Part shown: positions 15,945 to 37,950 of the stretch, piece by piece
Position numbering within the stretch: position 1 is the stretch's first letter
Layout: every line of letters begins with the position of its first letter
Source: Natranaerobius thermophilus JW/NM-WN-LF
GTDB lineage: Bacteria > Bacillota > Natranaerobiia > Natranaerobiales > Natranaerobiaceae
Direction: 5' to 3'
Assembly (NCBI RefSeq): GCF_000020005.1
Contig: NC_010718.1
Span: forward strand, 2,066,001-2,130,000
Length of the DNA: 64,000 nt
The notes under the pieces: model-generated
Databases searched by the model: none
Seen by the model: only the letters and a program-made list of their open reading frames with translations
Told to the model about the DNA's origin: nothing
Program-made: the position numbers and the translations under genes

Positions 15945-17255
15945 ATGAACATAAAAAACAATGAAGTATTAACATTGATCCGGAAGTCAGATATAAACCC
16001 TCTGAGTTTTGAAGGAAATTTCGGATTAGAAAAGGAGAATTTAAGAGTTGATGAACAAGGCAACCTGGCATTATCTCCTCATCCCAAGGAATTTGGTGAT
16101 AAATTACGCAATCCTTATATAAAAACCGATTTTTCAGAAAGCCAGATAGAGCTTATCACTCCAGTTTGTAAAAGTATAGAAGAAGCATACGAGTTTCTAG
16201 GTGAACTTCAGGACTTTGTTTCGGTGAGATTAACCGGAGAATATTTATGGCCTCAAAGCAATCTGCCTAAATTGCCAGAAGAAGAACAAATACCTATCGC
16301 AAGATATGGCAAGGAAGGTTATAAAGAAAGAAAATATAGAGAAAGATTAGCCAAAAAATACGGTAAAAAACTGCAATTACTATCCGGAGTTCACTTTAAT
16401 TTCTCCCTTAAAGAAGAATTTTTAAATAAGTTGTATGCTAGGTTAGAACACAATAAATCTTATCAGGAATTCAAAAATGATATTTATCTAAAAATCACAA
16501 AGTATTTATTGAAATACAGATGGCTGTTGATCTATCTAACAGGAGCCAGTCCAACTCTTAAAACTGCTGATAATTTAGGTTGCTATTGCAAAGATTTTCG
16601 TTCTCTGAGAAATAGTAGCTGCGGTTATAGTAATAATGAGGAACTTTATATCAGTTATGAAACGATCGAAGATTACGTTGCTAGCCTGCAGGCTTCCATT
16701 GATCAAGGTAAAATTCAAAACATTAATGAATTCTATTCACCAGTCAGGATTAAAGGAAGAGGGAAAGGAACATTAGAAGAGCTGTTGAAGCAAGGAATTC
16801 AATATCTGGAATTGAGGCTCTTTGATTTGAATCCTTTCGACAAAAACGGAATTTCAAAAGAAGACCTTTATTTTACAAGACTATTGATTACCTATCTGCT
16901 TGTAAAAGCAGATTTCACCTTTGGAACCATGGAACAGAAAATGGCTAATACAAATCATGAACAAGCAACTTTAGCTGAAAGACCTGAAAATATTGGCGTT
17001 TTTGATGAGTTAGGTCAGTGGGAAAATTTGCAGGAAGAAGCCACAAAAATTATAAATGAACTTGAAGAATTAATTGAAGTGCTTGGGGGTGAAACTGAGT
17101 ATTTTTCTTATGTAATCAATACGGCTAGAGAAAAAGTGCTAAAACCAGAAAAAACCTATGCCCTTAGGATTATTGAAGGAGTTAAACAAAGCTCCTATGT
17201 GCAGTTTCATATTGACCTGGCAAAAAAGCATCTTGAAGAGAGCAAGAAAAAGTAA
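15945..17255 (+). CDS. gshA: Glutamate-cysteine ligase (GshA, class I type)
   Basis: A protein of about 436 residues that makes gamma-glutamylcysteine from glutamate and cysteine with ATP. FEGNFGLEKENLRV near the N-terminus and TDFSESQIELITP are the glutamate/metal-binding signatures of the E. coli GshA type, also found in the N-terminal half of GshF. SGVHFNFSL and YLELRLFDLNPF follow. It lacks the ATP-grasp GshB half, so it is not a GshAB fusion. The start is uncertain: ATG 15945 has AGGA eight bases upstream, while the open frame extends to 15867. Its original terminator was split by the transposon. Confidence 0.88.
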   Translation: MNIKNNEVLTLIRKSDINPLSFEGNFGLEKENLRVDEQGNLALSPHPKEFGDKLRNPYIKTDFSESQIELITPVCKSIEEAYEFLGELQDFVSVRLTGEYLWPQSNLPKLPEEEQIPIARYGKEGYKERKYRERLAKKYGKKLQLLSGVHFNFSLKEEFLNKLYARLEHNKSYQEFKNDIYLKITKYLLKYRWLLIYLTGASPTLKTADNLGCYCKDFRSLRNSSCGYSNNEELYISYETIEDYVASLQASIDQGKIQNINEFYSPVRIKGRGKGTLEELLKQGIQYLELRLFDLNPFDKNGISKEDLYFTRLLITYLLVKADFTFGTMEQKMANTNHEQATLAERPENIGVFDELGQWENLQEEATKIINELEELIEVLGGETEYFSYVINTAREKVLKPEKTYALRIIEGVKQSSYVQFHIDLAKKHLEESKKK

Positions 17256-17282: not shown

Positions 17283-17295
17283 AAAAAGTTTGCCG
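17283..17295. terminator. Left half of the ssrA/gshA terminator, split by transposon insertion
   Basis: AAAAAGTTTGCCG is the exact complement of CGGCAAACTTTTT at 37567-37579. Deleting the transposon and one GTAGC copy brings them together as a 13-bp hairpin with loop TTGTAG and A/T runs on both sides. That is a bidirectional rho-independent terminator between gshA (plus) and ssrA (minus). Confidence 0.82.
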
Positions 17296-17297
17296 TT

Positions 17298-17302
17298 GTA
17301 GC
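17298..17302. repeat. Target-site duplication GTAGC (left copy)
   Basis: The five bases just outside the left transposon end equal those just outside the right end (37563-37567). A 5-bp duplication is the hallmark of Tn7-family transposition. Confidence 0.9.
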
Positions 17303-17306
17303 TGTG

Positions 17307-17444
17307 ACTTGAACCGTATCTTTGCCATTTTTTGAATCATAAGTTTGCCAAAAAACTTAATTTAACCCTTTAAATATTGATTATATTCATTTGATTAAGA
17401 AACATATAATTGCCAAAAATTCAAATTGGAAGCATAAAGTTGCC
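17307..17444 (+). repeat. Left-end array of four 20-bp putative TnsB binding sites
   Basis: Sites at 17307-17326, 17330-17349, 17395-17414 and 17425-17444 are all in the same orientation. The second reads TTTTGAATCATAAGTTTGCC. Consensus is roughly nnTTGAAnCATAAGTTTGCC, with GAA and TTGCC best kept. The first site begins inside the terminal repeat. Number and layout resemble the three or four spaced TnsB sites of a Tn7 left end. Confidence 0.8.
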
Positions 17445-17743
17445 AAAAATACAGAGATATTAGCCTGCAATTATCTCTTGAATTTAACTATACCAAACTT
17501 TTGTTCGGTTAACAACCTTATTGATTACAGAAATTATTCAAATTAATTTTTTTGAAAAAGAAGGAATTATTATAATTTTTGTCTAATAAATATTGTTAAG
17601 CATGGTAAATTTTACAAAACAATTGCTTGTTTGATCTCAAAATAATTATAACATTACTAATAACTACTACTACTTGATTTAAACAGAAATTATCCAAAAA
17701 TTAAATAAATTTATTCAGCACAAATTATATTTAACAGGATCCT
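17445..17743. other. AT-rich spacer inside the left end
   Basis: About 300 bases without a credible coding frame, terminator or repeat. It is strongly AT-rich. It lies between the binding-site array and the first cargo frames. Confidence 0.5.
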
Positions 17744-18543: not shown

Positions 18544-18583
18544 TGGACTTAGGTCAAAATTTTGGACACCAAAAAGTTAAGTA

Positions 18584-19462
18584 TTAAGCAGATTGCTTTG
18601 CTAGATCCTCAACATGTTGAGGAGTTAAAAACTCCAAACTTCCATGGATTCTTGTTCTGTTGTACCAGCTCTCAATGAACCTAAATAGAGCAATTTCAGC
18701 CGATTTGAAGTCTAAGTACTTAACATGGTTAACTTCTTCCTTTTTCAAAGTAGCATGAAATGATTCGATATGTGCATTGTCATAAGGGCAGCCTTTTCTG
18801 CTAAATGATTGCTTGATCCCTTTGTACCTTAAAAAACGCTTAAAGTCATCGCTAGTGTACTGGGTACCTAGATCACTATGTAGAATAAGTCCATTGCCAG
18901 GTTTCTGTGTATCATAAGCATTTTTAACAGCTTTAATAACTAAATCTGTTGTCATGGTCTTGCTAAAAGAGTATCCAACAATTTTATGGGTGTGTAAATC
19001 CATTACAGAGGCTAAGTAGCACCAGCCGTCTTTAACAGTATCAATGTATGTAATATCAGTAACCCACTTTTGATTGACAAATGTAGTTGAAAAGTCTTGT
19101 TTTAGGAGATTCTCTCGTTCGACTACTTTTTCTCTACTAGGATAAGGCCGATATTTTTTCCTGACAATTGATTTGATACCCTCTTTTCTCATTAATCGTT
19201 GGACTCTTTTTAAGCTGACTTTGTATCCTTTATTGATTAGCACAGCGTGGATCTTTGGTGCACCATATCGCTTTTTACTGTTTTTATGAATTTGAGTTAT
19301 TTGATCTAATAGTTCTCTGTTTTCTTTGTCACGATTAGATTCAACTCGATTTATTGTTTCGTAATAAGTACTTCTCGGAAAGTCTAGAGCATCACAAATA
19401 GCTTTGATAGTATGCTCGTCCTTTTGTTCTTTTATAAATTCAGTAAGCTCTGTATTGTCTAC
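18584..19462 (-). CDS. IS3-family transposase OrfB (DDE integrase domain), copy 1
   Basis: A frame of about 292 residues entered by -1 frameshifting from orfA at an AAAAAG run, with no good start of its own. It has the HTH_21 region (KKRYGAPKIHAVLINKGYKV) and the rve catalytic core: Asp in WVTDITYID, Asp in ILHSDLGTQYTS, Glu in NAHIESFHATLKKE. The OrfAB fusion is the active transposase. The frame is intact, so the copy may be functional. Confidence 0.92.
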   Translation of the reverse strand, partial: VDNTELTEFIKEQKDEHTIKAICDALDFPRSTYYETINRVESNRDKENRELLDQITQIHKNSKKRYGAPKIHAVLINKGYKVSLKRVQRLMRKEGIKSIVRKKYRPYPSREKVVERENLLKQDFSTTFVNQKWVTDITYIDTVKDGWCYLASVMDLHTHKIVGYSFSKTMTTDLVIKAVKNAYDTQKPGNGLILHSDLGTQYTSDDFKRFLRYKGIKQSFSRKGCPYDNAHIESFHATLKKEEVNHVKYLDFKSAEIALFRFIESWYNRTRIHGSLEFLTPQHVEDLAKQSA

Positions 19463-19737
19463 TTTTTGGCGAATATGGTCATAGCCTTTTTTAAGATTTC
19501 ATTCTCCTCTTTCAAGCGAGCCATTTCTTTTTGCATTTCTTCCACATCTTTTGAAGTGGCTCCCTCACTGCCAGATTGTTGGTTTGGAGAGAAATCTTTG
19601 ATCCATTTATAAATAGTAACCTCTGTCACACCATATTCGCTAGACAAATCCTTCACAGAACTACCTGAATTATATAAATCTACAATTGTTCTTTTGAAGT
19701 CTTCATTATATCTCTTATTACTCATTACTGGACACAT
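19459..19737 (-). CDS. IS3-family transposase OrfA (HTH), copy 1
   Basis: 92 residues. An HTH (GSSVKDLSSEYGVTEVTIYK) is followed by a leucine-zipper-like helix, MARLKEENEILKKAMTIFAKK, as in all IS3 OrfA proteins. Translation may really start at the MSNKRYNEDF methionine four codons in. Its end overlaps the orfB frame. Confidence 0.9.
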   Translation of the reverse strand: MCPVMSNKRYNEDFKRTIVDLYNSGSSVKDLSSEYGVTEVTIYKWIKDFSPNQQSGSEGATSKDVEEMQKEMARLKEENEILKKAMTIFAKK

Positions 19738-20439
19738 CCTTTCGTTATTAATATTGTAAGTGACTTAACCATGATGTGTCCAAGAATTTATACTAACACC
19801 ATAGGTTTTACTTAAGTTTTAATAACCCTATGTTTTTAATAAAAGATCCTGTTAGTTTAAATAATTTTGTTAAAAAACTAGAAGCAATTGATGAAATTAA
19901 TGGGTTTAGCATTTCAAACGATAATGATCACATAATGCTTAGTTTAGATGAGTATGACTTTAATATGTCATTAAAGGAAGACAGAATAACCTTCCATGGG
20001 GAAATAATTGATTACGATGATTTTAGAAAGCTAATAGACCTTATTCTAAATGCCTGTTATGATGTTTTTGAATTATCTAGGATAAGTGAAGTAGCTATAG
20101 CATTAGATTGGGGTAAAGAATTTTCACATATAAAGCATGCAGTTAGTTCTTACGTGGATAACTTCACAAAAACAGTCGAAAGACTGGGGAATGTACTTTT
20201 TGGTTCATCTTATTTTACACTAAGAGAGAATGATTATGACATAGACATCGGTATACGCCCAGCTTTTAAAAAGGAAATGGAATCAGGAATTACTGAAAAA
20301 AGGATTCATATTTTAGAGTTTGAAGTAGTTATTGTGAAGAAAGAACCTTCTAAAGGAGATGTAACTGATTTAATTGATAAAGCACATGATATATCATTTG
20401 ATAAAATAAGAAGCATCTTCAAATTGGTAGGAAGTGATT

Positions 20440-21452: not shown

Positions 21453-22601
21453 TTATAAATCAAAGTTATCTCTTCCAACCGTATCACGACCTGGTGACCT
21501 TTCCCCTGGTTTTTTATTACCTTTTACATTTTGGTTTTGTTGACTTTCCTGTTCATTTTCCGATTCCACTTTCTCAATATTTAGCCCTAACATTTCTTCT
21601 AATTTCCCACTATCATTATTATATTGTATTATTTGTTTTTCACCTTCAATTATTTCGGCTGCAATTTGCTCACATTGTGCTATTGTAAGAGCAGTCTTTT
21701 CTAAAATTTCTGCAGTTATTGTATTATCATTGTTATTAATGGCTTTAATTAACGCCCTGGTTAACCAGTTTTTTAAAACTCCTATACACCCAAGACTGTA
21801 CTTATACAATAATTCAAATTTGTCCTCTAGATTTGGAGTTCTTTCTAGAGGTAGTTTGTTTTGAAAAGATTTAATTGCCTTTATGAATAAATACTTCTGG
21901 TTTTCATCATAAGCTAAATATCTATGAAAATGAATAATTTGACTTCGCCTACTAAGTTGTCCATTTAAGTTTAGAAAATGTAAAAGTTCATAAGTACCAA
22001 TTAAAACAGGTAATGCATGCGTTTTATTAGCTAAAGACTTAATTGTATCTAACTGATCTATTAACTTCCTACCACTACCGAGTTTTGTAAGGTGTTGTGC
22101 TTCATCAATGATAAGCACTTTGACTTGACGATAATGGAGCGCCTTTTCAAATGCTCTCCTATACGTTGCCTTGTTTGATTTACTATTCAAATTAGTATTT
22201 AATTTTTTAGATTCTTTTCCATGAGTAACATCTGTTTTATAATCAACAAGTGGCTCCTCTAATTCTACTAATCCTCTATAATAAAAGTCCTTCCAATCAA
22301 ACCCACCTTGGTCTGATGCTATTGCTTCAACTCCTAAAATTGGTATAATGCCTGGGTCATTTTCCATATTTGAAGATTCTTCCTTTAGTATTTCACCTTC
22401 AATTTTGTGGCGCAGTGTTGTTTTACCTACTCCTGTTGGGCCTATCATGAAAACTAATGGAATATTTGATGGGTAATTAATTGTCAGTTCTAATTTTTGA
22501 TAAACATCAATTAGTGTGGCATGTGAAGTGGTATAGTCTTCAAAATACTTTATTCTTTTCTCAATAGGAGCATTTAGTATCGTTTCGGAAGTTTTAGACA
22601 T
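21453..22601 (-). CDS. tnsC: TnsC-like AAA+ ATPase (transposition regulator)
   Basis: A 382-residue AAA+ protein. Walker A is GPTGVGKTT (residues 54-62) and Walker B is VLIIDEAQHL (about 162-171), followed by the sensor region PVLIGTYELLHFLNLNGQLS. TnsC polymerises on target DNA, receives the signal from the TniQ/TnsD selector and activates the transposase. It follows tnsAB by 2 bp, as the last gene of the minus-strand operon. The C-terminus (about 340-382) is low-complexity and hydrophilic. TniB/TnsC subfamily assignment needs a profile search. Confidence 0.88.
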   Translation of the reverse strand: MSKTSETILNAPIEKRIKYFEDYTTSHATLIDVYQKLELTINYPSNIPLVFMIGPTGVGKTTLRHKIEGEILKEESSNMENDPGIIPILGVEAIASDQGGFDWKDFYYRGLVELEEPLVDYKTDVTHGKESKKLNTNLNSKSNKATYRRAFEKALHYRQVKVLIIDEAQHLTKLGSGRKLIDQLDTIKSLANKTHALPVLIGTYELLHFLNLNGQLSRRSQIIHFHRYLAYDENQKYLFIKAIKSFQNKLPLERTPNLEDKFELLYKYSLGCIGVLKNWLTRALIKAINNNDNTITAEILEKTALTIAQCEQIAAEIIEGEKQIIQYNNDSGKLEEMLGLNIEKVESENEQESQQNQNVKGNKKPGERSPGRDTVGRDNFDL

Positions 22602-22603
22602 GT

Positions 22604-25264
22604 CTAAAACTCCTCATAAGTATCTGAATTTTCGTTAGGATCTATCAAATCATCATTAAACACAGGGGGTTCATGTGTAACATTCACTTCATCCACATTT
22701 GGATTGCCAGTAATTTTGTCAATAACATTTTGGTTTTCCATTGCACGTTCTTTTTTCTGCTTTAAAAGTTTACTCTCCTTTTCCTCAATTTGAATCAGGA
22801 AGTTAGCTAGTTTTTTTGCTGATATTGCAGATTTTGAAGGACTTTGTTTTTGTCTTAATTCTTCACTTGCCCTTTTTAATTCCTTTTCAGTGCGATTTTT
22901 GAATACAGAATAGTATTCGGAAATACATTTAACCCAATGTTTATTTACAAAAACATACGCAATACCCATATTGAAGGGGTCATATCTAACCGGAACTTGT
23001 GTATATTCTATTTCAGGGTTTTTAAATTGGTCGTGCCAAAAATACCGTTTATCAATTTTCACACCCCTCCCCGGTTGTACTTTTGCCGTACCTTTTTGTG
23101 TAGAGGGAAGAGTATCAATCTTAAACTGGTCATCATACCTGATTAATCGGGAATACCTTTTTCCTGAATATACCATCCCATCATTGAAAGCGTCTCTTGG
23201 TGTTTGACTCAAAGCAGGATGGGGTGTTGTATCATATAACTCATACCCCCATTCACAAAGAACTGTATAAAGTTCCTCTAATGTCCATATAGCTTTATTT
23301 TTCGGATTTGTTCCTTTAGTTATTTGTCTAACTTTTTTAGTAGCTTGGGTATTCCCCTGGAGATTATATATAAGTTGAGAATGAGTTGTTCCAAACAAAC
23401 GCTCAATTACATTTCCAAAACGAGATTTTGAAGGTGGTCTGGTTTTTTTAATACATTCATAGCGCGCCAGGAAACTATCAAAATATATACTATGAAACTC
23501 TTTTCCACCATCAATAACAAAGTTTTGAGGTAGTCTATTAAATCTTCTGACGCACTCACGAACGACCATCATTATAGACCTATATGACGGTTCATCAAAG
23601 GTTAAATAAATTCCTAATAACCTCCTAGAAAATGCATCAGTCATGAATGTCACCCATGGTTTACCCATGTTTTCTCGTGTAATTGAATTTACCAACTCAA
23701 TATCCATTTGAGTATGATCAATATGGCATATCTCAAATGGTCTGTTTCCATGTTTTGGGGTATTCTGGTCTAATCTTAGCGGTGGTTCATACGGATAACT
23801 AGCTTTCGAACCTTCTCTCTTTTTGACTTTCTCATAGTTGGGGCGTTTATTTATTTCATTTATGAAAGTTTTGTAACTGGATGGTTCCAATCCTTGCTTC
23901 TCACATTCAATTCTAAATTTCTGATAAACAGAATTCTTATTTTTTTGTTTAGTGTTTTCGTAGTCAGTTTCTATTATTTCTTCCATAAGTTCTCTAGTCC
24001 TCTGGTGGATTTGGGGCATTTTATTTCCCTTGTCTTTATGTCTGGGCAATAACCCAACATATCCATTTCCAAAGACTTTTTCAGCTTCTCTGTAGTTTGA
24101 GACCCAATTTCGCAATGTTCTTGGAGGAGTATCCGTATTAGGGTTTTTGCCATTTAAAATAGGTACTATTTCTTCATATCTTTTAGTTGCTATTTCCATT
24201 GCCTCAGGGCTGGCCTTTGATAAAATTTCATTAATTTTTTCATTATCTTTATTTGTGTTTTCACCAATCTTATCTAACTTAACCTTCCCATTTTGTAACA
24301 ATTCTTCAAAACTGTTGTGTGGGAGGTCTATCTGCTGGTTGTCGTCTTGAGATATTAAAGTTATGGTAGTTTCTCCAATGTTAGCTATAGTAAATGAGCG
24401 CCCATCCCAATTTATTTTGTTTCCAATTTTAATATCAATAATTTCTGGTCTTTGTTCCTGAGTTTTTGATATCGAATAATTAAATGCTTTTGCTGTTAAT
24501 TCATCGGGATAAATAGGTGGAGGAAACATTCTACTTCCTAACATTTCATTTTTTAAGTCTACAAATAATTCATTACTTACTATTAGGTGGTATATCGAAT
24601 CAACATATTCCTCTCCTAAACTTTTTATTAACTTATCCAGTTTAATTCCAGGCTCCAAAGTAACTGTCGATATGATTGTATTAACAGTTATATCATCTAC
24701 TTCGATATTATATCTTAAGTAATCTTCTAAGAAAATCGTATTATTATATAAGTTTTCATCTATTTCTGAAGAAGATCTAACTCTAAAGAACAAGCCATAT
24801 TTTTTTGCATACTCTTCTCCAGGCGGACACCGCCATTGACCGTTAGTGTCTTTATAATATCTATTTGGGTTTTTCTCTTCTAATCTAATCAAATCTTCTT
24901 CAGTTTTCCATTCTTCCCATCCAGCCTTATCATCTTCAATTACAAAAAAATCTGGAGTATAGCGCATCCCTTTTGATTGTCCATTTTTTTTGTATTTAAT
25001 AGGTATTGATGGAGGTTGATCATAGAATTCTTTTATTTCGTTGTTATACTCCTTTAAATAAATAGCTGCCAGTTCAACCGTATGGCTCTCGAATTGTATA
25101 GTACACCCCATTTTCTTTGATGGGTAATTACCCCTTACATTTTTGGGGCCACTTTGAACATTTCTAGATGGAGGACTTTCTCTTATGTTTTCAATATATT
25201 TTTTTGTTTGTTCTGGAATTTTGTTCTTTAAACACCAATAATCAAAATCAAAATTTTTTGACAC
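22604..25264 (-). CDS. tnsAB: TnsA-TnsB fusion transposase
   Basis: 886 residues. The N-terminus holds a TnsA-like restriction-endonuclease fold: FES at 58-60 with Glu64, YTPDFFV with Asp105, and EWK at 118-120 (the D...ExK-type centre that cuts the 5' ends). A middle region has TnsB-type HTH segments. The rve/DDE core follows: Asp516 in CHIDHTQMD, Asp585 in FVIDGGKEF, Glu621 in NVIERLFG, with exact D-35-E spacing. A single fused protein could make both cuts for cut-and-paste movement. Fusions like this are known in some type I CRISPR-associated transposons. It starts at GTG after AAAGGAGG. Confidence 0.9.
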   Translation of the reverse strand: MSKNFDFDYWCLKNKIPEQTKKYIENIRESPPSRNVQSGPKNVRGNYPSKKMGCTIQFESHTVELAAIYLKEYNNEIKEFYDQPPSIPIKYKKNGQSKGMRYTPDFFVIEDDKAGWEEWKTEEDLIRLEEKNPNRYYKDTNGQWRCPPGEEYAKKYGLFFRVRSSSEIDENLYNNTIFLEDYLRYNIEVDDITVNTIISTVTLEPGIKLDKLIKSLGEEYVDSIYHLIVSNELFVDLKNEMLGSRMFPPPIYPDELTAKAFNYSISKTQEQRPEIIDIKIGNKINWDGRSFTIANIGETTITLISQDDNQQIDLPHNSFEELLQNGKVKLDKIGENTNKDNEKINEILSKASPEAMEIATKRYEEIVPILNGKNPNTDTPPRTLRNWVSNYREAEKVFGNGYVGLLPRHKDKGNKMPQIHQRTRELMEEIIETDYENTKQKNKNSVYQKFRIECEKQGLEPSSYKTFINEINKRPNYEKVKKREGSKASYPYEPPLRLDQNTPKHGNRPFEICHIDHTQMDIELVNSITRENMGKPWVTFMTDAFSRRLLGIYLTFDEPSYRSIMMVVRECVRRFNRLPQNFVIDGGKEFHSIYFDSFLARYECIKKTRPPSKSRFGNVIERLFGTTHSQLIYNLQGNTQATKKVRQITKGTNPKNKAIWTLEELYTVLCEWGYELYDTTPHPALSQTPRDAFNDGMVYSGKRYSRLIRYDDQFKIDTLPSTQKGTAKVQPGRGVKIDKRYFWHDQFKNPEIEYTQVPVRYDPFNMGIAYVFVNKHWVKCISEYYSVFKNRTEKELKRASEELRQKQSPSKSAISAKKLANFLIQIEEKESKLLKQKKERAMENQNVIDKITGNPNVDEVNVTHEPPVFNDDLIDPNENSDTYEEF

Positions 25265-25823
25265 AACAATTTCCTCCTTTATAATATTAAATTAATCCTA
25301 ATTCCATTTTTGTTTCTAACCAGGTTTTTCTTGCCTTTTCGTTAGATTCAATTATCCTTTTACCAAAGACCTCTTGAACTTTGCGCCTACTAGGATATAT
25401 GTTCTGTTGATGTAATTTTTTGGTTATCTCAATAACTTTTCGGCATTCATTTTTAATCCTTTCTTCTTGCTCTAATCTAATGAATTGTTTTCTGCGATCA
25501 ACAATTTTTTTACTTAATTTAGGAAAATATTTATATAGACTTTTATCACTTATTCCTATTAACTTTACAATTTCTTTTAATGAAGGAGGTGAATCCTCAG
25601 TTAGTGCATTTTCTAAGAAGCTTTTAATTTTTTCTAGATCTAAAGATACGTTATGATTTCTCTTTTTACGAGGAGGAACGCTTCTAGTATTTTCAAAGTT
25701 TTTAAAACTATAACTTAATCTTTCATTAGTTAATATTTGATAAGGTGAAATTTTAAGTATGGTGTTAGTATAAATTCTTGGACACATCATGGTTAAGTCA
25801 CTTACAATATTAATAACGAAAGG

Positions 25824-26102
25824 ATGTGTCCAGTAATGAGTAATAAGAGATATAATGAAGACTTCAAAAGAACAATTGTAGATTTATATAATTCAGGTAG
25901 TTCTGTGAAGGATTTGTCTAGCGAATATGGTGTGACAGAGGTTACTATTTATAAATGGATCAAAGATTTCTCTCCAAACCAACAATCTGGCAGTGAGGGA
26001 GCCACTTCAAAAGATGTGGAAGAAATGCAAAAAGAAATGGCTCGCTTGAAAGAGGAGAATGAAATCTTAAAAAAGGCTATGACCATATTCGCCAAAAAGT
26101 AG
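25824..26102 (+). CDS. IS3-family transposase OrfA (HTH), copy 2
   Basis: Same 92-residue product as in copy 1: HTH plus C-terminal zipper helix. It ends FAKK-stop at the AAAAAG frameshift site shared with orfB. Confidence 0.9.
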   Translation: MCPVMSNKRYNEDFKRTIVDLYNSGSSVKDLSSEYGVTEVTIYKWIKDFSPNQQSGSEGATSKDVEEMQKEMARLKEENEILKKAMTIFAKK

Positions 26103-26977
26103 ACAATACAGAGCTTACTGAATTTATAAAAGAACAAAAGGACGAGCATACTATCAAAGCTATTTGTGATGCTCTAGACTTTCCGAGAAGTACTTATTAC
26201 GAAACAATAAATCGAGTTGAATCTAATCGTGACAAAGAAAACAGAGAACTATTAGATCAAATAACTCAAATTCATAAAAACAGTAAAAAGCGATATGGTG
26301 CACCAAAGATCCACGCTGTGCTAATCAATAAAGGATACAAAGTCAGCTTAAAAAGAGTCCAACGATTAATGAGAAAAGAGGGTATCAAATCAATTGTCAG
26401 GAAAAAATATCGGCCTTATCCTAGTAGAGAAAAAGTAGTCGAACGAGAGAATCTCCTAAAACAAGACTTTTCAACTACATTTGTCAATCAAAAGTGGGTT
26501 ACTGATATTACATACATTGATACTGTTAAAGACGGCTGGTGCTACTTAGCCTCTGTAATGGATTTACACACCCATAAAATTGTTGGATACTCTTTTAGCA
26601 AGACCATGACAACAGATTTAGTTATTAAAGCTGTTAAAAATGCTTATGATACACAGAAACCTGGCAATGGACTTATTCTACATAGTGATCTAGGTACCCA
26701 GTACACTAGCGATGACTTTAAGCGTTTTTTAAGGTACAAAGGGATCAAGCAATCATTTAGCAGAAAAGGCTGCCCTTATGACAATGCACATATCGAATCA
26801 TTTCATGCTACTTTGAAAAAGGAAGAAGTTAACCATGTTAAGTACTTAGACTTCAAATCGGCTGAAATTGCTCTATTTAGGTTCATTGAGAGCTGGTACA
26901 ACAGAACAAGAATCCATGGAAGTTTGGAGTTTTTAACTCCTCAACATGTTGAGGATCTAGCAAAGCAATCTGCTTAA
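26099..26977 (+). CDS. IS3-family transposase OrfB (DDE integrase domain), copy 2
   Basis: Frame of about 292 residues, reached from orfA by a -1 shift (orfA TAG at 26100-26102; orfB codons run from GTA 26099). It has the same DDE residues as copy 1 (WVTDITY, HSDLGTQY, HIESFHA). The frame is intact. Confidence 0.92.
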   Translation, partial: VDNTELTEFIKEQKDEHTIKAICDALDFPRSTYYETINRVESNRDKENRELLDQITQIHKNSKKRYGAPKIHAVLINKGYKVSLKRVQRLMRKEGIKSIVRKKYRPYPSREKVVERENLLKQDFSTTFVNQKWVTDITYIDTVKDGWCYLASVMDLHTHKIVGYSFSKTMTTDLVIKAVKNAYDTQKPGNGLILHSDLGTQYTSDDFKRFLRYKGIKQSFSRKGCPYDNAHIESFHATLKKEEVNHVKYLDFKSAEIALFRFIESWYNRTRIHGSLEFLTPQHVEDLAKQSA

Positions 26978-27942
26978 TACTTAACTTTTTGGTGTCCAAA
27001 ATTTTGACCTAAGTCCATATATAACACAACTTCAATATTGAATTAAATGAAGGAAAATTATTTTTATTAACCCAAGTCCCTACAGTATTTTTGGGAATTT
27101 CTATATAATTAGCTAGTAAATTAATACTTCCCGCTTGTTTTACAATTTTCTTTAAATTATTTATGAAAATATCTTGTTTTGGTAAATTCTCTACATTAGA
27201 ACTTTGTCTAACAAATTCACTTAAACTCTCACTAATGAAGTACTGCCAACCCAAATCATCAACACACCTTGCAACATGTTCCCTCCCCAACCAGTTTCCA
27301 CAAATCGAACAAAATCCAGGTTTGAATTTATTTGTAAAGGCAAACATTTTATTGAAGCAGTAAGGACAAGTATCTTCTAAGTAATTGTCATGTACTTTAC
27401 AAATATTCAAATCATTGAAATGCCATAATAAAGGATTATATATTTCTTTATTTTTTGATACAGCCATTTCCTCATAACAATAGGGACACCATCTAAACTT
27501 ACTACTAAGTAATTTATAATTTACTATTACTTCTGAATATTTAAGCATTGTTAAGAAACTCAAATCACACCTCAAAGTAAAATCCTGCATAATAGTTACG
27601 TATTCTTCTGCTGTAATAGTTAATCCATTAATATTATAAAAATTGCTGTCATAGGAAGTATTATTAAAACTATTCTTGAATTGAAATCCACCACTAAATT
27701 GAGATAACTGTTTCTCTTTATTCATATGAGGTAACAATAACAAAGCAACAAGTTTTCCAGTATATAAGCTATGAGACTCTGCAACTCTAGCAATATAGCT
27801 AGTTAAACTTTCCACCTTTTCTGTTCCAACGCCTATTGGTTGCAAATTATTCAAATAACTTCTTTTTGGTATTTTGATTTCCTCATCTTCCATAATTGGA
27901 AAAATCTCCTTCAATAGTTCTACCCCTCTCGCCGTTTTTATT

Positions 27943-31232: not shown

Positions 31233-32705
31233 CTATTTATCTTTTAAAACTTCTTTTAATAATTCAATTGCACTTTCATCTTTAGGATCATTAGTATTTA
31301 ACTCTCCACGAAAGGCTTTAGAAAGAATAGATTGTTCTAGTTCAGCAACATAGGTTCCCAAATTTAATAAGTTTTGTATTCTATTCTCCTTTGCACTTAC
31401 TTTCTTCATGATTCTATTAATTTCCTTAATTTCTTCTTCAGGAGGTAGTGGTACTGGTAATGATGATAGTTTCTTTGAATTGATATTAGCCTGTCCTACT
31501 TGTTGTTTAACTGTAGATAGTAGATATTTTCGTCCAATATGACTATTAATATAATAACAAATATATGGTGCTAAAATCTTTTTGTAAAATAGCGAGATCT
31601 TTATCAAATATGAAGCATACGTAAATTTTCCAGCATGTTCTGGCTCAACAATTGCCGATTTTCCAACTAGCTCATAACTATTTGTTCTGTTAAACAATAA
31701 ATCATATTCTTCTAGTTTATATTTTTCTACATCTTTGTGATCAAAAGGAAGGTATTTTAGATCATTTAAATCAATACTTCCAGTTAATTTAATATTACCC
31801 ATCCTAAGAACAGGTAAACCATTTATATCTTTATAAGCCTTTGCAGATGTTCCATACGAAGAATGACAAATTAGTTCCCCTAAATCAATCCAACACCAAT
31901 TATCCGGAAGTTCATATAAACCATTGGGGCTTTTTTTAATATCAGTTTTCTTCTCAGAATTTATTTTAGCTAGCAAAGTATCTACTGACTCAACTCTCGG
32001 ATTTTCCTCACGCCACGTCAATTCCCCTTTAAAAGCCTTATCTAATATAGCTGCACGACGTAGTTCAAAAGTTTCTTTAGCTTCTCCTATTAATTCTTTT
32101 GCTTTATTAATTTTACTTAAAAGGCGATCAACTTTATAAACTATTCTTCTTTGTTCATTTTTCGGTGCTATTGGTATACTTATTTGCTTCAAATTTTTTT
32201 GATTTAAGCTAACTTGATTGACTGCCATTTTAATTCTTTTCAATACAGCTTTTCTAAAATTATAGGACCTCGTGTATAATTGGAGAAACTGAGGCAGAAT
32301 CATATTATTATTTACTCTAATTCTTAATAAATTCATTCCATGTATTAAAGGTAGATAATCTTCCTTAATCAAAGCAGTTTTACCTACATGTTCAATGCTA
32401 TTTATATGGCTTAAAACAATATCTCCAATTTTATAATAATCATTATTTTTGATTTTATCTAAATCCCTTATATATCTAACTCTATCCAGTTGTATTTCGT
32501 TGTTTTGAATTGATTCTATCCTCGTGACAGGTATCCCAGGTTTGGTCTTGCTTTGTTTTATTGTAGTTCCATTTTTAATTTCTTCTGCTAGTATGTCTAA
32601 TGCAACCCAAGCCCAGTTATTAGGCAGTTCATAAGGTTCTTCGTCTTCATGAACAATAGTTTCTTCTAATAATTCTTCTATTCTTTTGCTCTTCTTATCA
32701 GTCAT
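31233..32705 (-). CDS. hsdS: Type I restriction-modification specificity subunit
   Basis: 490 residues with the duplicated S-subunit plan. The first target recognition domain begins at ELPNNWAWVALDILAEEIKN. It is followed by a conserved helical repeat (IAPKNEQRRIVYKVDRLLSK, then RRAAILDKAFKGELTWREEN). The second recognition domain begins at LPDNWCWIDLGELI and is followed by LPPEEEIKEINRIMKKV and AELEQSILSKAFRGELN. It determines the split DNA target of the complex. It overlaps hsdM by 8 bp. The target sequence cannot be deduced. Confidence 0.94.
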   Translation of the reverse strand: MTDKKSKRIEELLEETIVHEDEEPYELPNNWAWVALDILAEEIKNGTTIKQSKTKPGIPVTRIESIQNNEIQLDRVRYIRDLDKIKNNDYYKIGDIVLSHINSIEHVGKTALIKEDYLPLIHGMNLLRIRVNNNMILPQFLQLYTRSYNFRKAVLKRIKMAVNQVSLNQKNLKQISIPIAPKNEQRRIVYKVDRLLSKINKAKELIGEAKETFELRRAAILDKAFKGELTWREENPRVESVDTLLAKINSEKKTDIKKSPNGLYELPDNWCWIDLGELICHSSYGTSAKAYKDINGLPVLRMGNIKLTGSIDLNDLKYLPFDHKDVEKYKLEEYDLLFNRTNSYELVGKSAIVEPEHAGKFTYASYLIKISLFYKKILAPYICYYINSHIGRKYLLSTVKQQVGQANINSKKLSSLPVPLPPEEEIKEINRIMKKVSAKENRIQNLLNLGTYVAELEQSILSKAFRGELNTNDPKDESAIELLKEVLKDK

Positions 32706-34137
32706 TTTTATCCTCTCCTGATTCAGAAATTCCTGTTTCCTTTAATTCATCAATAACCTCATTAAGTAAAGATGCAGCTTCTTGAAGTTTACATACTGTT
32801 TTTTCCGCTGATTCAATTGGATCTGGTAAATTTTCATATATTGATAGCGATTCATCCTGAATCAGACCTAAATCTAAACTGTCATTTTTCTTACGAATAT
32901 CCTCTCTTGTAAAGCAATTAAACCTCTCATTTTTTATTTTAGTTCTATCTACGGCTTTATAGGCTTTAATAAAGTCATCAAAGTGATCTTTTCTCAATGG
33001 ATTGGTTTTCCCTAAACTCTCCATGTTAGTTCTTAAATCATATACCCATACTTCTTTGGTATTGTCTTTATCCGTTTGCCCTCTAGTAAAGAATAACACA
33101 TTAGTTTTAACACCTTGAGCATAAAAGATACCTGTTGGTAAGCGCAGTATGGTATGAAGGTTACACTTCTCCATTAAATCATTTCTAATCTTTGCTCCCG
33201 TATTATCCTCAAATAACACATTATCTGGTAATACTACAGCAGCACGTGCCTTCCCGTTTGGTTTTAATGATCTATATATGTGTTGAAGGAAGTTTAACTG
33301 TTTATTAGTTGTAGTATAAGTTAAATCGTCCCTAGTCGGTCTTTCTCCACTTTTCTTAGTGCCAAAAGGTGGATTAGTTAGAACTACATCATAGTTTTTT
33401 AAGTTCTTTCCAGCTTCAGATAATGTATCACCTAAAATAATTTCACCTTCCAATTCATGTAGCATCGCATTCATTAAACCCAGCCTGTGAACATCTTTAA
33501 CTAGCTCACAACCTGTAAAAGCTTCTTTTACTTGAAATTCAGCTTCTTTTTGACTTAAAGAGAAGTAGTCATCTGTTTTCTTTCTTACATGTCTGTCTGC
33601 AGCAATCATGAAACCAAAAGTACCTGCAGCTGGGTCATTACATCTTTCTCCTGGTTCAGGATCAGTTAGCTCAACTATAGTATCAATAAGAGGACGCGGT
33701 GTGAAATACTGACCCGCGCCTGTCTTAGTTTCATTTGCGTTTTTCTCTAACAAACCTTCATAAAGGGCTCCAAGCCCTTCTTCTCTAGCACTATACCAGT
33801 CTAACCTGTCTATTGACTGTATAATCTTTTCGAGATTTTTAGGTTCATCTATATTGGTTGTAGCATTCATATATATCTGACTTAATAATTTATTTTTGGA
33901 TTGACCAATGTCAAGTAATAATTGTCTATAATGGTTGTATAGTTCCATACCGTGTTTTGTAGTTAAAGAATCCCAACGATATTCTTTAGGAATCACTTCT
34001 TCTGTTTCCTTTTCTTTCATCATTTTTAGAAATAAAATATAAGTTAGCTCTGTTACATATTGGTGATAAGTAACCCCATCATCTCTAAGTACATCACATA
34101 AACTCCAAAGTTTTTGAATAATTTCTTGATTTGTCAT
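32698..34137 (-). CDS. hsdM: Type I restriction-modification DNA methyltransferase subunit
   Basis: 479 residues. The SAM-binding region is NDPAAGTFGFMIAAD, and the catalytic motif NPPFG sits in NYDVVLTNPPFGTKKSG, typical of N6-adenine methylases. GAGQYFTPRPLIDTIVEL precedes it, as in all HsdM. The N-terminal helical domain starts MTNQEIIQKLWSLCDVLRDD. It forms M2S1 with HsdS for host methylation and R2M2S1 with HsdR for cleavage. It overlaps hsdR by 1 bp. Confidence 0.96.
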   Translation of the reverse strand: MTNQEIIQKLWSLCDVLRDDGVTYHQYVTELTYILFLKMMKEKETEEVIPKEYRWDSLTTKHGMELYNHYRQLLLDIGQSKNKLLSQIYMNATTNIDEPKNLEKIIQSIDRLDWYSAREEGLGALYEGLLEKNANETKTGAGQYFTPRPLIDTIVELTDPEPGERCNDPAAGTFGFMIAADRHVRKKTDDYFSLSQKEAEFQVKEAFTGCELVKDVHRLGLMNAMLHELEGEIILGDTLSEAGKNLKNYDVVLTNPPFGTKKSGERPTRDDLTYTTTNKQLNFLQHIYRSLKPNGKARAAVVLPDNVLFEDNTGAKIRNDLMEKCNLHTILRLPTGIFYAQGVKTNVLFFTRGQTDKDNTKEVWVYDLRTNMESLGKTNPLRKDHFDDFIKAYKAVDRTKIKNERFNCFTREDIRKKNDSLDLGLIQDESLSIYENLPDPIESAEKTVCKLQEAASLLNEVIDELKETGISESGEDKND

Positions 34138-37100
34138 TAGACGTGATCCCTTCCTTCCTGGTTAAATAGTTCCTCATTAATTTTTTCAACAATCATATCT
34201 ATTTGTCCATCAAAAATCTTATTTAATTGCTTATAACCTCCATGTCTTTTAAATGGTTGGACTTCGAAAGCTTCTTCTGGATCCGGGCCTAGTACCTTTT
34301 CTTCTAAAAGTTGCTTTTCTATTCTTTCAAGCCATTTTTTTTGTACAGGTGGCCATGCTTTCATTCTATAGATTCTTTTCATTGCATTTTTGACTCTCTC
34401 TTCATGACTAACTAATGCATCACCCACTGTTAACTGTCTAATAAAGCTTATAATATCAGCTGCTATATCTTCATTTTTAGCATCTCTCCAAGCAGCTTGC
34501 AAGTTCTTTTCGTTATAACCTTGTTGATCAAGTTCTATTTTAAGTTTTCTTAAATCCTCTCTAGTAAGCTCCTTAGGTCTCTGACAAACTACTTTTAATG
34601 CAGGGATGTGATTTATATTTTCTTCAATAAACTGTTTAAACCCTTCTAAATAATCTTCAGGCTTTTCTGCGTTCCCATAACCCCTAGTTGTAGATAAGTG
34701 TTCATCCTTATGGTTTGAGATATACTGATATTGAGGTCTTTCACGGTTTTCATCAATGTAATTAACTATACTTTCACTTTTTTGCAACTCATTTACAATT
34801 TCTTCTGTTTCTGAGTTTTTCATCCAATCAATATATTCATCAACAGTTTTTCCGCCAGTCAATGCTTTAAAATTTTCTTTTTCTTCTTCGGTCCAATGTT
34901 TACTTTTACGTTGAATTTTTGCTTTAATTTGATCTATATGATTTTTTTGCTTATCAGTTGAGTTTATCTGTTCTAGTTCATTTACCAACTGTTTCACTGG
35001 TACATTTGGTTTTTTTACAACGGGTTTCATATCAGTATAAGGCTTTAAAGCTTCGTAAATTTCTACTGCATCAAATATATTAAAGTGATCCTTATCAATC
35101 TCATCACATCTTCTAGTTGCCCTACCTAGCATTTGTTCATATAAGATTCGTGACCGTACCCTTCGCATAAACACAAGACTACAAATAGGTGGCACATCAA
35201 CGCCTGTAGTAAGTAAATCAACAGTCACAACAATATTAGGTAAACGTTCGTTTTGAAATAATTTTATTGCTTGGAGTGGATTTTTTAGGGACCCAGTTAT
35301 TTTCATAACTGCATTGTCTTCAATTGGACCATATTTATTTTCTAATTCTTCCTTTAATATTCTTACAATTGTGTCAGCATGATCATCATTAGCAGCAAAT
35401 ATTAAAGTTTTTCCCTCTAGCTCCGGATGAATATAGTTCACGAGTTCTTTAATGACAGTTCTGTTAAAACTTTCAGTTATTACTTGTTTGTTAAATTGGG
35501 AGACATCTATTTCTACCTCATCTTCCATAACTTCTTTCTTTATATCTCCACTTTTGGCATCATAAACATCTACTTCTTCTCCAACTTGCCAATTAATCCC
35601 TTCTTTCTTTAATTTAGTATTAATTTGATATGGGGGCTCATGGTCAATTAAATAACCATCTACCACTGCTTCACGATAGGAATAGGTATATATTGGGCTC
35701 CCAAAAATTTCCACAGTATGAAGAGCTGGTGTTGCAGTAAGCCCAATTCTAACAGCATCAAAGTAATCAAGTACCTGACGATATTTACTAACATAGTCAT
35801 TATGATCTCTAAAGTATAGTTCTAGCTCTTCCATTTCGCTGTCTAAAGTATAGCCTCGATGTGCTTCATCTACCACTATACAATCATATTGATCAACTGT
35901 AGGTTTGTCCTTTTCAGGATCATTATAATATATTCTTCGCATCATTCCTTGCACAGTAGAAATATGGACTTTAGTTTCTGGATTTGGGTTAGGTGCTTTA
36001 AGAGACTGTAGCTCAAATATTTCAGTAAACGAGTTAAAACTTTCTAGCTTTGAATCTTTAAAGGCATTCTCAGCTTGCTTTCCAAGAGCGTTTCTGTCAA
36101 CTAGAAATAAAACTCTCTTAAATCTTCTGGACTTAACCAAACGGTATATTAACCCAATTGCCATTCTCGTTTTACCTGTTCCTGTTGCCATAGCTATAAG
36201 AAGACTTTGTCTTCCTTCTTCTAATCCCTTTTCAATAGCTTTTATAGCTTCTTCTTGATAGTAGCGTAATCCAAGATAATCTAACGGTTCTTCTTTCAGT
36301 TCTTTAGTTGCTTCTTCTATATTTTTCTTTGATAAATCTGTTAGTCCTTCTGGAGAGTACCAATCCTTCAGAGGCCGAGGATGATTAGTTTTCTTTCTTG
36401 CATCTAAAAACCAAATACCAGATTTGTGTTCTAGTTGCTTTAAATAAGGACGACCATTAGTAGCAAATAGAAAAGGTACTTTGTATCCGTTCCATGGACC
36501 TGATATTTCTTCATTTTCCACCTGATAGATTCGTTTGGAGTATTGCTTAGCCTGCTCTATATCAGATTGTATGTTCTTACTTTTTCGCTTAGCTTCTATA
36601 ATCCCTATAAATTGCATTCCTACAAACAAGGCATAGTCAACAGAGCCATTTTTGACAGGCCATTCAGCAATAGCAAGGTTTCGTCCCTTTTCTGGACGTA
36701 TACCCTTACTATATCGGATAGTTTCTGTATCAGCTTCCCAACCAACAGCTCTTAATTTATCATCTATAATAGTACGTGTTTCAGCTTCAGTTAATTCCAA
36801 GCCTGTGCCTAGTTGCCTGGCTTTTGTTTTTCGCTCTTTTTTCTCATCATCCCGACTAGCTTTACTTCTTAAACTATTTAATTCATTTTCTAGTTTTTTA
36901 ACCTTCTTCTCATAAGAAGATGCAATTTTCTCTAATCTTTCTCTTTCTTTTTCAAGCGATTCAAAATCTATTTTTTCAGGTTCAACATATGCAGGTGGTT
37001 CAAAATCCCATCTGCCATAAACTTGCATAAACCAAACTGATATACGAAAAGCCATCCTCAGAAGAGTTTTTGCATCATCAATATTCCCATACCCAGCATG

Positions 37101-37385
37101 AGCGGCCTTGTTTCCTATTTTTCTGATTGTATGAAATAAATCTAGCAAGTCATCTGTAAGTAAATCTTCTTTTTTCAATATGGCTAATCGAGATACTTGT
37201 TTCTGATCTTCAGGTTCTTCAAGATTTTCTACAGCAAAAATAAACTTCACTAATGTTTCTGCAAACATGCGAAGTTTAATTATTGTCGTATTGGGGTCAG
37301 TATGTAGGTTTTTTTCGGCTATCTCTCCTAATTCTGAAAGAATAGACCAGTCACCTGTTAAGAAATCAAAGTTGCTCTTTTGCAT
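34137..37385 (-). CDS. hsdR: Type I restriction endonuclease subunit R (EcoEI/EcoR124-like)
   Basis: 1082 residues. The N-terminus (1-130) is a DUF4145-type domain, followed by a coiled coil (about 140-180). The nuclease domain has SVDYALFVGMQFIGIIEAKR, the D...EAK site. Helicase motifs follow: ATGTGKTRMA (Walker A), CIVVDEAHRG, GLTATP and MLGRATRRCD. It translocates DNA and cuts far from the site when unmethylated. The C-terminus contains a QLNKIFDGQIDMIVEKINEE tail as in the EcoEI_R_C family. It starts at ATG 37385 after AGGGGGT and is the first gene of the operon. Confidence 0.95.
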   Translation of the reverse strand: MQKSNFDFLTGDWSILSELGEIAEKNLHTDPNTTIIKLRMFAETLVKFIFAVENLEEPEDQKQVSRLAILKKEDLLTDDLLDLFHTIRKIGNKAAHAGYGNIDDAKTLLRMAFRISVWFMQVYGRWDFEPPAYVEPEKIDFESLEKERERLEKIASSYEKKVKKLENELNSLRSKASRDDEKKERKTKARQLGTGLELTEAETRTIIDDKLRAVGWEADTETIRYSKGIRPEKGRNLAIAEWPVKNGSVDYALFVGMQFIGIIEAKRKSKNIQSDIEQAKQYSKRIYQVENEEISGPWNGYKVPFLFATNGRPYLKQLEHKSGIWFLDARKKTNHPRPLKDWYSPEGLTDLSKKNIEEATKELKEEPLDYLGLRYYQEEAIKAIEKGLEEGRQSLLIAMATGTGKTRMAIGLIYRLVKSRRFKRVLFLVDRNALGKQAENAFKDSKLESFNSFTEIFELQSLKAPNPNPETKVHISTVQGMMRRIYYNDPEKDKPTVDQYDCIVVDEAHRGYTLDSEMEELELYFRDHNDYVSKYRQVLDYFDAVRIGLTATPALHTVEIFGSPIYTYSYREAVVDGYLIDHEPPYQINTKLKKEGINWQVGEEVDVYDAKSGDIKKEVMEDEVEIDVSQFNKQVITESFNRTVIKELVNYIHPELEGKTLIFAANDDHADTIVRILKEELENKYGPIEDNAVMKITGSLKNPLQAIKLFQNERLPNIVVTVDLLTTGVDVPPICSLVFMRRVRSRILYEQMLGRATRRCDEIDKDHFNIFDAVEIYEALKPYTDMKPVVKKPNVPVKQLVNELEQINSTDKQKNHIDQIKAKIQRKSKHWTEEEKENFKALTGGKTVDEYIDWMKNSETEEIVNELQKSESIVNYIDENRERPQYQYISNHKDEHLSTTRGYGNAEKPEDYLEGFKQFIEENINHIPALKVVCQRPKELTREDLRKLKIELDQQGYNEKNLQAAWRDAKNEDIAADIISFIRQLTVGDALVSHEERVKNAMKRIYRMKAWPPVQKKWLERIEKQLLEEKVLGPDPEEAFEVQPFKRHGGYKQLNKIFDGQIDMIVEKINEELFNQEGRDHV

Positions 37386-37420: not shown

Positions 37421-37450
37421 ATTATAACATATATTTACAAATAATAACAA
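37421..37450 (-). promoter_or_regulatory. Promoter of the hsd operon
   Basis: Minus strand TTGTTA (37450-37445) and TATAAT (37426-37421), 18-base spacer, about 35 bp before the hsdR ATG. It lies just inside the right-end binding sites and an insulating terminator. Confidence 0.65.
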
Positions 37451-37455
37451 TTAAT

Positions 37456-37490
37456 AAAAAAACCCATGGAAGTAATTACCATGAGTTTTT
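37456..37490 (-). terminator. Rho-independent terminator inside the right end
   Basis: Minus-strand hairpin AAAAACTCATGG / CCATGGGTTTTT with one mismatch, followed by seven T residues. It stops transcription coming from ssrA before it reaches the hsd promoter. Confidence 0.8.
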
Positions 37491-37558
37491 GAAGTAAAAG
37501 TTTGCCACCTCTATTTTGAAGTAAAAGTTTGCCGCTGCGGCAAACTTATGGTTCAAGT
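37487..37558. repeat. Right-end array of three 20-bp putative TnsB binding sites
   Basis: Two exact copies of TTTTGAAGTAAAAGTTTGCC lie at 37487-37506 and 37514-37533 (period 27) on the plus strand. A third site, ACTTGAACCATAAGTTTGCC, is on the minus strand at 37558-37539 and starts in the terminal repeat. The outer site matches the left-end orientation (inverted), while the inner two face it. This differs from classical Tn7, whose right-end sites are all tandem. Confidence 0.78.
37525..37547 (-). terminator. Right-end hairpin that may replace the ssrA terminator
   Basis: Back-to-back binding sites create AAGTTTGCCGC / GCGGCAAACTT, followed on the minus strand by TTTT. The retained ssrA terminator arm (minus AAAAAGTTTGCCG) could also pair with the same CGGCAAACTTTT strand. 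Either fold would give a terminator downstream of ssrA. Confidence 0.5.
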
Positions 37559-37562
37559 CACA

Positions 37563-37567
37563 GTAGC
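37563..37567. repeat. Target-site duplication GTAGC (right copy)
   Basis: Identical to 17298-17302 and directly abutting the right terminal ACA. Confidence 0.9.
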
Positions 37568-37579
37568 GGCAAACTTTTT
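37567..37579. terminator. Right half of the ssrA terminator, split by transposon insertion
   Basis: CGGCAAACTTTTT, exact complement of 17283-17295; it lies 12 bp beyond the tmRNA 3' end. Its partner is now 20 kb away. Confidence 0.8.
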
Positions 37580-37591
37580 AGCTATTTTGTC

Positions 37592-37950
37592 TGGTGGAGG
37601 CGGGGGGAATTGAACCCCCGTCCGGAGATGCCCAAGCAAGAGGCTCTACGAGCGTAGCCTCTAATTTTTGATTTCGCTTTACAAGGCTCCTAGAGGCGGG
37701 ATCCTTGTAAAGCTAGCCTCAATTGGTTTCCCGGAACGAGCGAGGCAACTCACACCGGTATCCTGCTAGGGTTGGCGCCCGGTCTCGTTCCCGCAGGAAA
37801 GGAACGAGTGGACGTGCTACGTTAATTTACGCAGCAGCTAAAGCGTAATCTTCGTCGGCATTTAAATTTACGATCCATGTTTTATCCAGGCCATGGTCCT
37901 GGGCTCGCTCCTCTTACTCCAACATCCCCGTCGAATCCAAGCTCGCCCCC
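37592..37950 (-). ncRNA. ssrA: Transfer-messenger RNA (tmRNA)
   Basis: A 359-nt gene. The 5' end GGGGGCGAGCTTGGATTCGA and the 3' end GGTTCAATTCCCCCCGCCTC followed by CACCA fold into the tRNA-like domain, with acceptor GGGGGCG pairing to CGCCTCC. The CCA is encoded. The tag reading frame ends NLNADEDYALAAA before TAA (codons around 37870-37830). The RNA rescues stalled ribosomes with SmpB, whose gene lies directly upstream. Its 3' region is the likely target recognised by the transposon. Confidence 0.97.

What the first reader, a model, noticed from the sequence alone, without database searches (positions are those of the whole stretch)
37525..37579. Transposon right end may rebuild the ssrA terminator it destroys
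The retained arm next to ssrA (minus AAAAAGTTTGCCG) can pair with CGGCAAACTTTT from the inner right-end site, and the back-to-back sites themselves form AAGTTTGCCGC/GCGGCAAACTT plus TTTT. A second strong terminator follows at 37456-37490. The element could thus insert at an essential RNA gene without run-through into its cargo. gshA on the other side gets no replacement.
Basis: inference. Interest (0 to 1): 0.8.

Follow-up and report, generated by a model that had tools for sequence, protein, structure and literature searches.

The report
Transposon end insulated from ssrA transcription
A Tn7-like mobile element that lands just after the tmRNA gene (ssrA) has cut that gene's transcription stop signal in two.

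Summary
The sequence facts hold. A Tn7-like element (17303-37562, TGT...ACA ends, 5-bp duplication GTAGC) split a bidirectional terminator between gshA and ssrA. Rejoined flanks score D=19 towards ssrA and D=10 towards gshA. Back-to-back sites form a hairpin at 37527-37545, and a second terminator hairpin lies at 37463-37485.

Twenty related elements all sit 25-33 nt past ssrA and share one right end: site 1, 5 bp, inverted site 2, 9 bp, inverted site 3. So the palindrome is primarily conserved end geometry (putative TnsB sites). In the window it scores just under threshold (D=-3.3), because its tail is only TTTTACTT. The retained arm paired with site 2 scores far worse (D=-45). The likely functional replacement is the second terminator (D=+11), followed by a promoter-like site and hsdR.

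An inward terminator occurs within 300 nt of the right tip in 10 of 20 elements, against 14% upstream of ORFs, 3% of random windows and 0 of 5 left ends. In two relatives the site palindrome itself qualifies. Canonical Tn7's right end also has such a hairpin (D=+3.6). gshA gets no replacement. Five relatives apparently carry a spare ssrA just inside the right end. No transcript data were available.

The parts
37592..37950 (-). ssrA (tmRNA), the gene whose 3' side is the attachment site
   Evidence: ARAGORN; Rfam RF00023 204.9 bits
37563..37579 (-). Retained ssrA-side arm of the split host terminator (AAAAAGTTTGCCGCTAC read from ssrA), including target duplication GTAGC 37563-37567
   Evidence: rejoined flanks score D=19 in the ssrA direction
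37539..37562 (-). Right tip TGTGAC and site 1 (putative TnsB site) TTGAACCATAAGTTTGCC
   Evidence: conserved in 20 elements
37516..37533 (+). Site 2, inverted relative to site 1 with a 5-bp gap
37489..37506 (+). Site 3, same orientation as site 2, 9 bp further in
37527..37545 (-). Site 1/site 2 hairpin GTTTGCCGCAGCGGCAAAC followed by TTTTACTT: near-terminator, D=-3.3
37451..37490 (-). Inner intrinsic terminator (stem-loop 37463-37485, extended stem to about 37490, U-tract 37451-37462), D=+11
37421..37450 (-). Promoter-like site TTGTTA-18-TATAAT between the inner terminator and hsdR
   Evidence: consensus match only, 10 of 12
31233..37385 (-). Type I restriction-modification cargo hsdR/hsdM/hsdS, transcribed in the same direction as ssrA
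   Evidence: Pfam
21453..25264 (-). Fused TnsA-TnsB (22604-25264) and TnsC/TniB-type ATPase (21453-22601)
   Evidence: Pfam
25287..27914 (-). tniQ interrupted by an IS3-family element (25758-27017)
   Evidence: tblastn of a relative's TniQ finds both halves
17303..17445 (+). Left end: tip TGTGAC and direct sites at 17309, 17332 and 17427; no inward terminator
17284..17302 (+). Retained gshA-side arm of the split terminator, with duplication GTAGC 17298-17302

Best explanation
This is a member of a group of Tn7-like transposons (fused TnsAB, TnsC, TniQ) that home to a fixed point 25-33 nt past the 3' end of ssrA, right end towards ssrA. The fixed distance often falls inside the native ssrA terminator, and here it split that terminator in its loop (shown by sequence). 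The element's right end consists of three putative TnsB sites, the inner two inverted, so sites 1 and 2 form a palindrome (shown). Transcription leaving ssrA would cross this palindrome, be slowed or partly stopped by it in this copy (inferred), and be stopped mainly by the dedicated intrinsic terminator at 37451-37490 (strong prediction). That would leave the restriction cargo under its own promoter (inferred). The gshA side is left without a terminator (shown by absence of a predicted one).
For: Element ends and duplication. Rejoined terminator D=19, site hairpin D=-3.3, inner terminator D=+11. Twenty elements with the same right-end layout and distance. Inward terminators in 10 of 20 right ends against 1 of 120 shuffles, 19 of 600 random windows, 42 of 293 stretches upstream of ORFs and 0 of 5 left ends; Fisher p=3e-4 against the upstream set. 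In 7 of 8 elements with a dedicated terminator the first ORF inside points away from ssrA, so no element gene needs that terminator. Native terminators are split or displaced in other copies too: G911, G1151, G564 and G418 by rejoined flanks, and G573 against the empty site of its congener G758. Tn7's own right end next to glmS carries a similar hairpin, D=+3.6.
Against: No transcript data. The D-score is my own implementation with a formula and cut-off recalled from memory. Four relatives that kept a native terminator also carry an inner one, so an association with terminator loss is not significant here. The elements are related, so the Fisher test overstates independence.
Confidence: 0.72

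Rival explanations
1. One reading: the site 1/site 2 palindrome (or the retained arm paired with site 2) is itself the replacement terminator, kept by selection for termination.
For: Two substitutions relative to the family-consensus site 2 turn the tail TTATGCTT into TTTTACTT and raise D from -23 to -3.3. In G1056 and G1067 the same palindrome reaches D=12 and D=16 with a U-tract. Site-like palindromes after the spare ssrA in G564, G911 and G803 score D=22, 22 and 9.
Against: D is below threshold in the window and -45 for the arm-plus-site-2 form. The palindrome is present but without a U-tract in most relatives. A better terminator follows within 40 nt.
Confidence: 0.2
2. The palindrome and the inner hairpin have no insulating role: the first is only the transposase binding geometry, the second a chance or cargo-derived hairpin.
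For: The palindrome is conserved in spacing in every element regardless of termination. Inner terminators share no sequence, and sister elements G636 and G1107 differ in having one.
Against: Inward terminators are several-fold enriched at right ends, absent at five left ends, and mostly not attributable to a convergent cargo gene.
Confidence: 0.15
3. The split host terminator is itself the remnant of an older right end, which would explain its 14-nt identity with site 2.
For: Identity beyond shuffles. G395 has a right-end-like remnant just outside its left end (read by eye).
Against: The gap between the arms is 8 bp instead of 5, the outer half of the site motif is absent, and the implied tip would sit directly at the ssrA 3' end rather than about 29 nt away.
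Confidence: 0.08

Closest known systems
Tn7 at attTn7 downstream of glmS
   Same: Right end nearest the target gene, insertion a short distance past the gene 3' end. The right end (E. coli NZ_CP033762) has a terminator-like hairpin between its end sequence and tnsA, D=+3.6. [quoted passage not shown] its text was not available.
   Different: Target is an RNA gene; TnsA and TnsB are fused; inner right-end sites are inverted; cargo, not the transposase operon, follows the right end.
Tn7-like elements and CASTs with fused TnsAB (types I-B and I-D; cyanobacterial TnsAB elements)
   Same: Fused TnsAB about 42-47% identical in cyanobacterial plasmids; insertion 30-33 nt past a tRNA in CAST I-D (PMC10293859) resembles the 25-33 nt past ssrA here.
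   Different: No cas genes among the element ORFs scanned; ssrA as target. The terms tmRNA and ssrA do not occur in three main Tn7-like papers.
Integrase-driven islands in tmRNA genes
   Same: ssrA as a preferred integration locus (general knowledge; Williams 2002 seen only as a reference).
   Different: Those use tyrosine recombinases inside the gene; this uses a DDE transposase past it and leaves ssrA untouched.

Membership tests
Tn7-like transposon | TnsA plus DDE transposase TnsB, TnsC-type ATPase | tested here: met
   Pfam
Tn7-like transposon | TniQ/TnsD target selector | tested here: inconclusive
   Present but interrupted by an IS3-family copy; relatives G386 and G395 each carry two, all above 430 aa
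Tn7-like transposon | TGT...ACA ends, several TnsB-type sites at each end, 5-bp target duplication | tested here: met
   sites inferred from repeats, binding not tested
Tn7-like transposon | Site-specific insertion at a fixed distance past a conserved gene | tested here: met
   25-33 nt past ssrA in 20 elements
CRISPR-associated transposon | Element-borne cas genes | tested here: not met
   No cas family in Pfam scans of the main element ORFs
Intrinsic terminator (hairpin 37527-37545) | Stable hairpin followed by a U-rich tract, D at or above 0 | tested here: not met
   D=-3.3; near threshold, so a weak role is not excluded
Intrinsic terminator (37451-37490) | Stable hairpin followed by a U-rich tract, D at or above 0 | tested here: met
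   D=+11 and fold z=-5.7
Intrinsic terminator (37451-37490) | Stops transcription in vivo | not testable with these tools
   No transcript data

The most novel reading that the evidence does not exclude
In ssrA-homing Tn7-like elements the inverted TnsB-site pair at the right end is a dual-use sequence: transposase binding site and, in several lineages independently, transcription terminator. This would compensate for the element's own destruction of the ssrA terminator; other lineages compensate by carrying a spare ssrA.
Probability: 0.3. Interest if true: 0.72.

Novelty: new variant of a known kind. Interest (0 to 1): 0.55.

Why it matters
Transposons that use important genes as safe sites must avoid harming them and avoid being transcribed through. 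This group shows a repeated solution (an inward terminator at the target-proximal end) together with a conserved, unusual end layout, and gives about 20 natural replicates in which to test whether end sites evolve into terminators. It also offers ssrA as a well-defined landing site for Tn7-like tools.

Tried and rejected
Scans of viral contigs for TnsAB relatives gave none, and a distant DNA search of plasmids gave only tmRNA-like fragments. No close relative with an empty site was found: the nearest genome, G001, has an unrelated ssrA terminator (D=34) and no gshA-ssrA junction like this one. Looking for the same right-end layout in cyanobacterial TnsAB elements and in G669 with the site model found nothing, which may only mean that their sites differ. 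A link between loss of the native terminator and presence of an inner one was considered; the numbers (6 of 11 lost, 4 of 9 retained at D at or above 0) do not show it. Retained arm paired with site 2 was rejected as the main terminator (D=-45). An E. coli Tn7 control was added after recalling the right-end sequence and was confirmed in real genomes. A first hairpin finder missed imperfect stems and was replaced by a folding-based one.

Full report
What is there. The window comes from a genome of 3.19 Mb in three contigs. ssrA lies on the minus strand at 37592-37950, with smpB behind it. gshA lies on the plus strand and ends at 17255. Between them is a Tn7-like element. Its ends TGTGACTTGAACC...GGTTCAAGTCACA run from 17303 to 37562, flanked by GTAGC on both sides. 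It encodes fused TnsAB and TnsC, a TniQ interrupted by one of two identical IS3-family copies, and a type I restriction-modification system next to the right end. These ends occur once in the genome.

The split terminator. Rejoining the flanks with one copy of GTAGC gives AAAAAGTTTGCCG-loop-CGGCAAACTTTTT, a terminator that can serve both gshA and ssrA. I scored hairpins with an intrinsic-terminator score D (stem stability plus U-tract; formula recalled from memory; rrnB T1 scores 29 and the trp attenuator 31). The rejoined site scores 19 in the ssrA direction and 10 in the gshA direction. In the occupied locus the site 1/site 2 hairpin scores -3.3 and the hairpin at 37463-37485 scores +11. The retained arm paired with site 2 scores -45. 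On the gshA side nothing is found up to 18700. A promoter-like TTGTTA-18-TATAAT lies between the inner terminator and hsdR.

The palindrome is end architecture. Searching genomes with TnsAB profiles and locating tmRNA genes gave 20 elements, the window's included, whose right tip lies 25-33 nt past the ssrA 3' end. All share one right end: site 1, 5 bp, inverted site 2, 9 bp, inverted site 3 (in G418 and the G386 type the sites are more diverged). Mapped left ends of this site type have direct sites 23 bp apart. The palindrome therefore follows from the site layout and not from the loss of a terminator. That these are TnsB sites is inferred from repetition and position.

Are right ends enriched for inward terminators? 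Within 300 nt of the right tip, 10 of 20 elements have a hairpin with D at or above 0 in the direction of ssrA transcription; shuffles give 1 of 120. Controls: 19 of 600 random 300-nt windows, 42 of 293 stretches upstream of ORFs, and 0 of 5 left ends read inward. Fisher p is 3e-4 against the upstream set; the elements are related, so this is optimistic, although the terminators share no sequence. In seven of the eight elements with a dedicated terminator the first ORF inside points away from ssrA, so the terminator has no element gene to serve.

When end sites do become terminators. In G1056 and G1067, sister elements by the TnsAB tree, the site 1/site 2 palindrome is followed by a U-tract in the 9-bp spacer and scores 12 and 16. 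In the window, two substitutions relative to the consensus site raise the score from -23 to -3.3, and both occur identically in sites 2 and 3. Site 2 also shares 14 nt with the retained host arm, against a shuffle maximum of 8 and at most 9 in the other elements. Eleven of these are already shared by unmodified site 1. I cannot explain this identity; chance, gene conversion and an old remnant remain open.

Splitting is recurrent. Rejoined flanks show a split terminator in G911, G1151 and G564 and a displaced one in G418. G573 can be compared with a real empty site in its congener G758: the insertion lies in the loop of CCACCTGATGAAGGTGG. Nine of 20 elements keep the native terminator, apparently because the distance ruler and the terminator position vary independently.

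A second way of coping. In G564, G911, G816, G803 and G1033 a further ssrA lies just inside the right end, complete in four and cut by the contig end in G1033. The inner copies of G564 and G911 are 98.6% identical while the outer host copies are 83.8% identical, so the inner copy appears to travel with the element. Whether it is functional, or a target gene captured by chance, is not known.

Relation to known systems. This is a Tn7-like element by protein content, ends and target duplication. Canonical Tn7 at glmS in E. coli also has a hairpin with a U-tract between its right-end sequence and tnsA (D=+3.6). Literature on Tn7-like target selection that I could read does not mention ssrA or tmRNA; Gay 1986 on Tn7 in the glmS terminator was not available. 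The general theme, a target-proximal end that stops incoming transcription, may therefore already be known for Tn7; the ssrA-homing group, the inverted inner sites and the occasional conversion of sites into terminators appear to be new variants, within the limits of that library.

Noticed in passing
L101:1127-1977; also L146/L158 (G911), L144/L156 (G816), L143/L157 (G803), L147 (G1033): Five ssrA-homing Tn7-like elements carry a second ssrA just inside their right end; inner copies of G564 and G911 are 98.6% identical while the host copies are 83.8% identical, so the spare tmRNA gene appears to be mobile.
   Followed up: partly
L101 just after 1977; L158 and L157 after the second ssrA: The spare ssrA is followed by a site-like back-to-back palindrome scoring as a terminator (D=22, 22, 9), possibly an older right end reused as its terminator.
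   Followed up: partly
window 25758-27017 and 18544-19803: Two 100% identical inverted IS3-family copies; one interrupts tniQ, so the element is probably no longer mobile on its own.
   Followed up: partly
window 37525-37579: 14-nt identity (AAAAGTTTGCCGCT) between the retained host terminator arm and right-end site 2, beyond chance and unexplained.
   Followed up: partly
L054 about 1990-2290; L150-L154: tmRNA genes of several hosts carry an insertion near the 3' end that looks like a group I intron (judged by eye from a GATATAGTC-type motif); the element still inserts relative to the true 3' end.
   Followed up: no
L163/L164 (G1260): Two TnsAB genes about 15 kb apart downstream of one ssrA, suggesting tandem insertions at the same attachment site.
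   Followed up: no
L050:1-214 (G395): Right-end-like sites just outside the left end of the element, suggesting the remnant of an earlier element at the same site.
   Followed up: no
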